The notes below the pieces were generated by a model that did not search any database, was not told the DNA's origin, and saw only the letters and a program-made list of their open reading frames with translations. Shown here one piece after another: positions 39,109 through 40,801 of a stretch of DNA of 64,000 nucleotides (its first letter is position 1; each line of letters begins with the position of its first letter). The DNA lies in NCBI GenBank assembly GCA_015501075.1, contig JADNYJ010000062.1:144881-208880 (forward strand), written 5' to 3'. Source of the DNA: Gymnopilus junonius. Taxonomy: Eukaryota; Basidiomycota; Agaricomycetes; Agaricales; Galerinaceae. A program made the position numbers and the translations under genes.

Positions 39109-39945
39109 AGTGCATTAAAATCTGTCCAATCTTCACTTGAGTCTACTTCTTTTCGTGTTATCTTGCATAAGGATTCCGTACTTTCATATCGCCATTGTAC
39201 TTTGGATCTTCATCAATTGATCGACATGTCGATGTAAGCGATAACTGGCAATGCCTATTTCGAAATTTTGAGGAACTTTTTGGTGACTGCTCCATTATCT
39301 ACCGTGGCTGCGAATGCTACTATTAAACAGGCCTCTTTTCTACCAGTCGAACCATGACATTGGCAAACTTATGGTGGACAGCATGTGAGTGGGACCCTAA
39401 TGCTGTTCCCAAATCACCAGTTCTCTGAAGGTGCCCCATGTCGTTATGGCCTGGTGATCATGAGTATTATTAGTACTTAAGCAGATGTCGCGAATTCGTG
39501 TATGTCTGTTTGTCCTCCCCCCTGTTGAGGTAGATTTTTTGTTCTTCTCCTGCTCTCCTTTGTGTTCTATGCCTGGACCTCCTCTTTGGTCGAAGCGGAG
39601 CGAGGTCGAGGTCTTGTATATATAGCAACATACGAAAAGTCAAGGTCCGCTTAGTAGGCTTCCGCTCATGGCACAGCTGATATCGGCATTCATTGCGACG
39701 TTATGTCCAGATGACTATTTTGGAAGACCTTCATTCCGTCTACACCTTGTGCCCAAATGATATGCGTTCGACATGGCTACTGGCTACGTGTTCCCTCTGC
39801 TTCCTTTCGGTGGTCGTCGCATCAAAAGGACGTTTGACAAAAATAGAACATCTGAAAATGGCAGGCGAAAAAAACTTTTTCACTTCTGTCTATTTAAGCT
39901 GCGGCTGCCTTCGCGAAATTGTCCAAAGCAAAGCCGAGCTAGAGT
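39109..39945. promoter_or_regulatory. CTR to BIM1-like intergenic region
   Basis: 837 bp between the CTR stop and the BIM1-like start. A TATA-like run TATATATAG sits near 39617-39625, about 320 bp upstream of the start codon, and GCTGA occurs once at 39676-39680. A single pentamer has no statistical weight, so no copper-responsive element is claimed. Confidence 0.35.
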
Positions 39946-40801
39946 ATGCGTTCTGCGGTTGTCTTCCTACTCGCTGCCCTTGCAGGAATCGTCAGTGCGC
40001 ACTTCCAGCTGCAGTTCCCCCCTCCCCGAGGAGTCTTTGTCGAGGTTGATGAACCAAAATTCTGCGGTGTGCTCCGAGTTCCGCTGGATTTCTGTGACCC
40101 CAGTACTAAAAATATATCTAGACAACTACTTAACACCAGCGCCTAACCGCTCTCTGTTCCCCTTGAGTGGCGGATTTTTCACGCTCAATTCGGAGCACCC
40201 ATCCTGGACTGGTAAAGCATTTTTGCGCTCCAAGCTTCCCCATTTCTGACCTCTACGTTGTGTAGCTGGTGTTCTTGTTTCGACTTTGCCTGATCCCACC
40301 TCTTTCCAAAACTTTTCCCAAGTTAACACCTTTTTCCAAGTTCAAGGTGAAGGTGCCTTCTGCATCCCTCTTGACTTGAAATCTTCGAACGAGACGGGAT
40401 TGACGAGCGGCCAGAACGTGACCTTGCAGGTGAAGTTATTTTTCTTTTTCTCTGATTACAAGTAGTGTTTAACTATTGGCTATTAGATTGTGTTCAGCGG
40501 TGGAGATGGTCAGCTGTACCAAGTACGTTTGCTTTCAATAGCAGATTACCTCGCTTCTTTACTTACTTAACATCCTTTACAGTGCGCTGATGTAACGCTG
40601 AGCGATAACTTCACAATCCCATCAAGTGTTGCATGCACAAATGCTACTAGCTCCGGAAATAGCGCCAGTACAACTCCTACCAGTGCTCAGACTTCACCTA
40701 CAGCTGGCTCCAAGTCTGCCGGAGTTGCGCAGTTCGCATATCCCACTACAATCATGGTCTCTGCCTTCATGGTTCTCCTTGGAATGGTCATTGTCTTTTG
40801 A
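39946..40801 (+). CDS. BIM1-like/X325 copper-binding cell-surface protein, GPI-anchored
   Basis: Five exons (39946-40066, 40122-40211, 40266-40429, 40487-40522, 40583-40801) give 209 residues. The signal peptide MRSAVVFLLAALAGIVSA is cut to expose an N-terminal His in HFQLQFPPPRG, the hallmark of the LPMO-like BIM1/X325 family. Family members bind copper with this His, a second His and an Asp; here a second His is available in NSEHPSW. The core continues RSLFPLSGGFFTLN, TFFQVQGEGAFCIPLDL, NVTLQIVFSGGDGQLYQCAD, then a Ser/Thr-rich stalk and a hydrophobic C-terminus (TTIMVSAFMVLLGMVIVF) fitting a GPI signal. Cryptococcus Bim1 loads copper for Ctr1 under copper limitation; other X325 members have different roles. 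It does not look like an active LPMO. Confidence 0.9.

What the first reader, a model, noticed from the sequence alone, without database searches (positions are those of the whole stretch)
39109..40801. CTR copper transporter directly upstream of a BIM1-like copper-binding protein
The CTR gene (38377-39108) and the GPI-anchored BIM1-like gene (39946-40801) are neighbours on the same strand with nothing between them. In Cryptococcus neoformans, Bim1 delivers copper to Ctr1 during copper limitation. Physical linkage of the two families suggests a small copper-uptake locus in this mushroom, possibly co-regulated. I see both proteins clearly; their joint function here is inference.
Basis: partly seen in the sequence, partly recalled or inferred. 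Interest (0 to 1): 0.8.

Follow-up and report, generated by a model that had tools for sequence, protein, structure and literature searches.

The report
Conserved mushroom copper-uptake gene pair
In the mushroom Gymnopilus junonius a copper-channel gene sits beside the gene for a cell-surface copper-binding protein, and the two genes seem to stay together in many mushrooms, which suggests that they work as one copper-uptake unit.

Summary
CTR (38377-39108, 3 exons) and a BIM1-like/X325 gene (39946-40801, 5 exons) are same-strand neighbours in Gymnopilus junonius. The 837-bp spacer holds no recognisable gene but carries a ~145-bp dispersed repeat.

Of 35 organisms in both my CTR and BIM1 hit lists, 32 have both genes on contigs of identical length; about 1.5 are expected by chance. 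Where both tags run in gene order (5 organisms, 6 BIM1 genes), a CTR lies 1-2 tags away every time. The 32 span four orders.

The three copper ligands are kept in 119-120 of 120 homologues; the predicted fold matches LaX325. One BIM1 locus was found in this genome. Another plasma-membrane-type CTR there is paired with a reductase gene instead, as known in ascomycetes.

Best reading: an old, inherited copper-uptake pair. Co-regulation and copper handover are inferred. Aspergillus fumigatus already has a GPI protein-CTR-reductase trio in print, so the kind is known; my searches listed no report of this Agaricomycete pair.

The parts
38377..38639 (+). CTR copper transporter exon 1 (Met-rich N-terminus ...IIMMMVPYLHF..., first transmembrane part)
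38693..38974 (+). CTR exon 2, ending in the MxxxM motif (M178/M182; the M182 codon is split by intron 2)
39021..39108 (+). CTR exon 3 with GxxxG (G195/G199) and stop
39109..39945 (.). CTR-BIM1 spacer, 837 bp, no recognisable protein gene
39474..39623 (+). copy of a ~145-bp dispersed repeat inside the spacer
39946..40066 (+). BIM1-like exon 1: signal-type peptide, then predicted mature N-terminal His (H19, 40000-40002)
40122..40211 (+). BIM1-like exon 2: second brace His (H66, 40196-40198)
40266..40429 (+). BIM1-like exon 3
40487..40522 (+). BIM1-like exon 4: Gly-rich GGDG loop with the likely third copper ligand Asp (D132, 40505-40507)
   Evidence: an Asp on a Gly-rich loop as ligand is from PMC7529816, its assignment to D132 is mine
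40583..40801 (+). BIM1-like exon 5: Ser/Thr/Pro-rich stalk and hydrophobic GPI-type tail

Best explanation
A two-gene copper-uptake locus inherited vertically in Agaricomycetes. SHOWN: a CTR-family gene and a BIM1/X325-family gene, both open and with their key motifs, are neighbours, and relatives of the two are linked in organisms of four orders. INFERRED: the BIM1-like protein is secreted, cut after A18 so that H19 becomes the N-terminus, and held at the surface by a GPI anchor. There it binds Cu(II) with H19, H66 and D132 and releases it next to the trimeric CTR. A reductase encoded elsewhere makes Cu(I), which CTR admits through its MxxxM ring. Both genes are probably induced by copper shortage through copper-fist factors, of which the genome has at least two loci.
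For: Gene models and Pfam scores. 32 of 35 organisms with both hits have them on contigs of identical length, expected about 1.5 in an assumed 40-Mb genome. Tags that I judge to be gene-ordered (not JGI 'DRAFT' numbers): in 5 of 5 organisms with such tags on both sides, each of 6 BIM1 genes has a CTR 1-2 tags away: Antrodiella, Gymnopilus dilepis (two pairs), Steccherinum, Trametes cinnabarina, Hohenbuehelia. JGI numbers 1-2 apart in Hebeloma, Collybiopsis luxurians and Laetiporus, 3 of 11 such organisms. H19 120/120, H66 120/120, D132 119/120 with one gap. AlphaFold model pLDDT 86.4; best PDB hits LaX325 with TM 0.80-0.83. The only BIM1 locus found in the genome is the one beside a CTR. In Pseudogymnoascus destructans two CTRs and two BIM1-like genes are induced by copper withholding (PMC12113139 passages).
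Against: 3 of 35 organisms show different contig lengths: Abortiporus biennis, Amylocystis lapponica, Russula aff. rugulosa. The Russula CTR groups with the reductase-paired CTR; the other two group with linked CTRs and are exceptions unless contig breaks or haplotypes explain them. Same contig is not adjacency, least of all on Mb-sized contigs. In 8 of 11 organisms with JGI numbers on both sides the numbers are 23,019-86,270 apart; JGI numbers need not follow gene order (recalled), so this neither supports nor refutes. The group test on the tree was uninformative: 500 of 500 shuffles did as well. No shared promoter element was accepted. No expression data. In P. destructans the BIM1-like and CTR tags are not neighbours. 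In A. fumigatus the trio is not simply co-regulated by copper: the CTR falls with copper, while Afu6g02820 is listed among genes raised through AceA at high copper (PMC8425704 passages). Gene order around C. neoformans CBI1 was not checked.
Confidence: 0.75

Rival explanations
1. The two genes are merely old neighbours: linkage persisted by slow rearrangement and the proteins act independently, BIM1 mainly in cell-wall integrity.
For: In C. neoformans Cbi1 also affects chitin and chitosan (PMC9258870 passages). No common promoter element found. No background rate of conserved neighbours in Agaricomycetes was measured here.
Against: Linkage in 32 of 35 organisms across four orders. Both families act in copper uptake in other fungi. 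An adjacent trio exists in an ascomycete (PMC2481287).
Confidence: 0.15
2. The BIM1-like protein is an active LPMO-type enzyme and the CTR only supplies copper for it.
For: LPMO-like fold and histidine brace; weak fold hits to AA10 LPMOs.
Against: The Asp ligand occupies a site that is free for an exogenous ligand in LPMOs. Bim1 is not redox active, did not cut cellulose and released copper on H2O2 (PMC7529816 passages). CTR proteins move copper inward.
Confidence: 0.03
3. The pair serves defence against excess copper or oxidants: BIM1 buffers surface copper and the CTR is not high-affinity.
For: Deleting the A. fumigatus trio made it menadione-sensitive without reduced growth on iron-limited medium (PMC2481287).
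Against: In P. destructans CTR1a and BLP3 rise under copper withholding and are -4.69 and -5.38 in the second list, which I take to be copper overload (PMC12113139 passages).
Confidence: 0.07

Closest known systems
Cryptococcus neoformans Cbi1/Bim1 with Ctr1
   Same: Same two protein families; GPI-anchored, His-brace plus Asp copper site; works with Ctr1 under copper limitation (PMC9258870 and PMC7529816 passages)
   Different: The link described there is functional; the passages I saw say nothing of gene adjacency
Aspergillus fumigatus Afu6g02800-02810-02820 (GPI protein, CTR, metalloreductase)
   Same: Adjacent GPI-protein and CTR genes, both higher in hyphae with normal than with CGD neutrophils (PMC2481287). 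That Afu6g02800 is BIM1-like is my inference from the consecutive accessions XP_747797/6/5 in PMC13208438
   Different: Includes a reductase gene; no PF01794 match was listed on the window's contig
Aspergillus nidulans ctrA-freC pair
   Same: CTR gene next to a copper-uptake partner gene; 110 of 127 screened species (PMC7705104 passages)
   Different: Partner is a metalloreductase, not BIM1; the C767/C184 locus of this mushroom genome resembles that arrangement
LaX325 of Laetisaria arvalis (PDB 6ibh/6ibi/6ibj)
   Same: Only PDB relative found by sequence at E up to 0.001 (1.2e-29) and best by fold
   Different: About 38% identical; its genomic setting was not examined

Membership tests
Ctr copper transporter (PF04145) | Pfam profile above gathering score | tested here: met
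   118.6 bits, cut-off 25.3
Ctr copper transporter (PF04145) | MxxxM in TM2 and GxxxG in TM3 (motifs recalled; MxxxM also in PMC7705104) | tested here: met
   M178/M182 and G195/G199 invariant in 36 aligned sequences; each motif matched by pattern in 159 of 173 CTR hits, fragments included
Ctr copper transporter (PF04145) | Transports Cu(I) at the plasma membrane | not testable with these tools
   needs yeast complementation and localisation
BIM1-like / X325 | PF20238 above gathering score | tested here: met
   106.6 bits, cut-off 27
BIM1-like / X325 | N-terminal His after signal peptide, internal His, Asp on Gly-rich loop | tested here: met
   H19, H66, D132 present; kept in 120, 120 and 119 of 120 homologues; cleavage site judged by eye
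BIM1-like / X325 | LPMO-like fold as in LaX325 | tested here: met
   model of the 160-aa NCBI partial, pLDDT 86.4; 6ibh_A E 3.3e-15, TM 0.80
BIM1-like / X325 | GPI anchor | tested here: inconclusive
   S/T/P 48% in residues 158-190 and hydrophobic last 18 residues; no GPI predictor run
BIM1-like / X325 | Binds and releases copper, no polysaccharide cleavage | not testable with these tools
   recombinant protein needed
Copper-uptake gene cluster | Conserved linkage of functionally related genes | tested here: met
Copper-uptake gene cluster | Co-regulation by copper | not testable with these tools
   no expression data; promoter motif scans unconvincing

The most novel reading that the evidence does not exclude
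The mushroom runs two dedicated copper entry routes, each wired at the gene level: a reductase-fed CTR (CTR+FRE tandem at C767/C184) and a BIM1-fed CTR (this locus). The BIM1-linked CTR would be a specialised CTR subtype of Agaricomycetes that has evolved with its own copper carrier. The tree fits this but does not settle it: the reductase-paired CTR sits in a 7-row group (99/92) without any linked row, but the wider 13-row group is open and holds one linked row.
Probability: 0.3. Interest if true: 0.65.

Novelty: new member of a known kind. Interest (0 to 1): 0.5.

Why it matters
The Bim1-to-Ctr copper handover was worked out in one human-pathogenic yeast. Linkage of the two genes across mushrooms argues that the partnership is general fungal biology, gives the X325 proteins a likely purpose, and makes it testable in harmless laboratory mushrooms. 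It also offers a genomic rule for guessing which CTR paralogue each partner serves.

Tried and rejected
A shared 13-mer, AAAGGAGAGCAGG, upstream of CTR (37816) and of BIM1 (39549) looked like a common regulatory element (2 found, 0.11 expected in the window with up to 1 mismatch). It was picked post hoc, occurs 9 times in the genome with the 7 other copies on contigs where no CTR was found, and the BIM1-side copy lies inside the dispersed repeat. Rejected as evidence.

A missing C-terminal His in this CTR looked odd, but 37 of 173 CTR hits, this one included, have no His or Cys in the last 9 residues, so it is not remarkable.

A possible upstream CTR exon with a signal-like peptide (38073 onward) needs introns of 250-328 nt; the NCBI protein does not have it. 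Not adopted.

How the linkage count was made: 106 NCBI-named rows of the 120 BIM1 rows listed (144 found) and 101 NCBI-named CTR rows (116 found; 120 listed of 930; 7,991 candidates scored). Unnamed metagenome rows and rows without a contig were dropped. Species, contig lengths and tags were copied by hand into. 'Same contig' means identical longest-contig length; the 32 includes G. junonius itself. Of 20 BIM1 rows with gene-ordered tags (17 organisms), 13 rows (11 organisms) had no CTR in my lists and one (Termitomyces T112) had a CTR without a tag; these could not be scored for adjacency.

Full report
What is there. Splicing the window with introns placed by eye at GT-AG sites gives a 210-aa CTR protein (exons 38377-38639, 38693-38974, 39021-39108) and a 209-aa BIM1-like protein (exons 39946-40066, 40122-40211, 40266-40429, 40487-40522, 40583-40801). 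Pfam gives PF04145 at 118.6 bits and PF20238 at 106.6 bits, both far above cut-off. NCBI's own CTR protein is identical (P0121) and its partial BIM1 protein is 100% identical (P0002). Both are listed for Gymnopilus junonius on a 208,880-base contig, and the window ends at base 208,880 of G000:C579. The organism is therefore taken as G. junonius (Agaricales).

The spacer. Seven stop-to-stop ORFs of 51-162 aa that lie in or overlap the 837 bp between the genes were tested; none has a Pfam match above cut-off (two sub-threshold matches, E 0.078 and 0.12). Rfam finds nothing at E up to 5 from 36000 to 43000. A DNA search with 8 kb around the locus finds the region itself once in the genome, plus 32 short matches that all fall within 39473-39627. 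Aligning 16 of these with the window shows a ~145-bp element beginning TCTTAAGCAGATGTCGCGAATTC and ending GAGCGAGGTCGGGGTCTTGT; flanks look unrelated except in two pairs of copies that share them. So 'nothing between them' is nearly right: no gene seen, but a small dispersed repeat of unknown class.

Linkage elsewhere. I could not read other fungal genomes with these tools, so I used names, locus tags and contig lengths attached to homologues. Of 35 organisms present in both lists, 32 have CTR and BIM1 on contigs of identical length; placing BIM1 at random in an assumed 40-Mb genome would give about 1.5. In nine organisms a shared contig is under 250 kb, down to 10,452 bases in G. dilepis. In the 5 organisms with tags that I judge gene-ordered on both sides, each of 6 BIM1 genes has a CTR 1-2 tags away: Antrodiella citrinella, Steccherinum ochraceum, Trametes cinnabarina, Hohenbuehelia grisea and two separate pairs in Gymnopilus dilepis. 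Of 11 organisms with JGI numbers on both sides, 3 have them 1-2 apart (Hebeloma cylindrosporum, with CTR 440165 and BIM1 440166 and 440167; Collybiopsis luxurians; Laetiporus sulphureus) and 8 have them 23,019-86,270 apart; such numbers need not follow gene order (recalled), so the 8 are silent. The 32 span Agaricales, Polyporales, Russulales and Gloeophyllales (orders checked for five species; the rest recalled). Exceptions: Abortiporus biennis, Amylocystis lapponica, Russula aff. rugulosa.

The CTR tree (103 rows). Linked CTRs are spread over the tree and mostly sit with relatives of their own order, as expected of vertical inheritance. The C767 CTR of this genome (approximate sequence) sits with six other rows, the Russula exception among them, in a group with support 99/92 and no linked row; the next wider group adds one unlinked row, and the wider, open 13-row group holds one linked row (Hohenbuehelia). 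Treekit's own test of the label was uninformative (500 of 500 shuffles as low), and the root is arbitrary. The tree is therefore weak support for two CTR types.

Other CTRs of the same genome. PF04145 finds CTR exons on five contigs. C767 and C184 are 99.3% identical over 8.6 kb, and C778 and C816 98.5% over 4.5 kb, so these are taken as haplotype copies. That leaves four loci. C767/C184: CTR followed on the same strand by a ferric-reductase-type gene (PF01794, PF08022); the C184 copy of the CTR reads through its middle, the C767 copy differs by one base in length there. C778: a CTR that looks frame-broken, with a reductase-type gene about 3 kb away on the other strand. C601: a CTR that looks like the vacuolar CTR2 type (recalled judgement), with no PF01794 match listed on that contig. 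C579: this locus, with BIM1. Only one BIM1 locus was found (the tool calls its counts lower bounds). So the plasma-membrane-type CTR loci found here each have a copper-uptake partner near them, and the partner differs.

Is the BIM1 protein fit to bind copper? The signal-type peptide ends at A18, so H19 would become residue 1. H19 and H66 are kept in 120 of 120 homologues and D132 in 119 of 120, with one gap. For Bim1 and LaX325, ligation by the His brace and an Asp on a Gly-rich loop is described in PMC7529816 (passages); that this Asp is D132 is my assignment. An AlphaFold model of the 160-aa NCBI partial (pLDDT 86.4) matches LaX325 best (6ibh_A, E 3.3e-15, TM 0.80), with AA10 LPMOs far behind. 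The C-terminus is S/T/P-rich and then hydrophobic, as expected of a GPI signal; no predictor was run. In the CTR, MxxxM and GxxxG are present and invariant in 36 aligned sequences.

Literature. In A. fumigatus, Afu6g02800 (GPI-anchored protein), Afu6g02810 (CTR) and Afu6g02820 (metalloreductase) are adjacent, and all three are higher in hyphae with normal than with CGD neutrophils (log2 11, 8, 3; PMC2481287, section 19 read in full; other passages). PMC13208438 tables (passages) list XP_747797.1, XP_747796.1 and XP_747795.1 as A. fumigatus homologues of a BIM1-like protein, a CTR and a FRE of P. destructans; I infer that these are the same three genes. Against simple co-regulation, PMC8425704 (passages) has Afu6g02810 falling with copper but Afu6g02820 among AceA-dependent raised genes. 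P. destructans BLP2 and a FRE bear neighbouring tags, VC83_03095 and 03096, while its CTR tags are elsewhere. PMC7705104 reports a CTR-metalloreductase pair in 110 of 127 species (passages). [quoted passage not shown] None of the titles and abstract openings listed by my ten searches (two searches listed 20 of 260 and 20 of 24) is about the CTR-BIM1 pair in Agaricomycetes. The two founding papers are not held, so it may already be in print.

Judgement. What remains open is function: co-regulation and handover are inferred from relatives. The locus is best filed as a conserved copper-uptake gene pair, a new member of a known kind. The unexpected part is that this genome pairs different CTRs with different partners.

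Noticed in passing
window 39474-39623: Copy of a ~145-bp dispersed repeat with 32 further matches in the genome (69-100% identity, some partial, some with shared flanks), clear ends, no Rfam match; class unknown.
   Followed up: partly
L020 (G000:C767) 3075-6787 and L019 (G000:C184): CTR followed in tandem by a ferric-reductase-type gene; the two contigs are near-identical, taken as haplotype copies, and differ by one base in length within the CTR.
   Followed up: yes
L021 (G000:C778) about 6813-7700: A CTR-like gene that looks frame-broken, about 3 kb from a reductase-type gene; probably a decayed copy.
   Followed up: partly
window 37240-37806 (-) and 43275-44007 (-): Rhodanese-type genes flank the CTR-BIM1 pair on both sides, both on the minus strand; the second scores below the Pfam cut-off.
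   Followed up: no
P0005/P0110, P0019/P0093, P0044/P0096: Neighbouring tags suggest tandem BIM1 pairs in Hebeloma, Hypsizygus and Asterophora: one member of FCDGY type, the other of CGGY type, perhaps two old BIM1 subtypes; only a CD type (FCDNY) was found here.
   Followed up: partly
L024 (G000:C112), L025 (G000:C144): Two different copper-fist transcription-factor loci with a KGRP motif, candidates for regulating this pair.
   Followed up: partly
P0057 and P0253: A metagenome BIM1 and a metagenome CTR both list a longest contig of 1,797 bases; possibly one short contig with both genes. Not counted.
   Followed up: no
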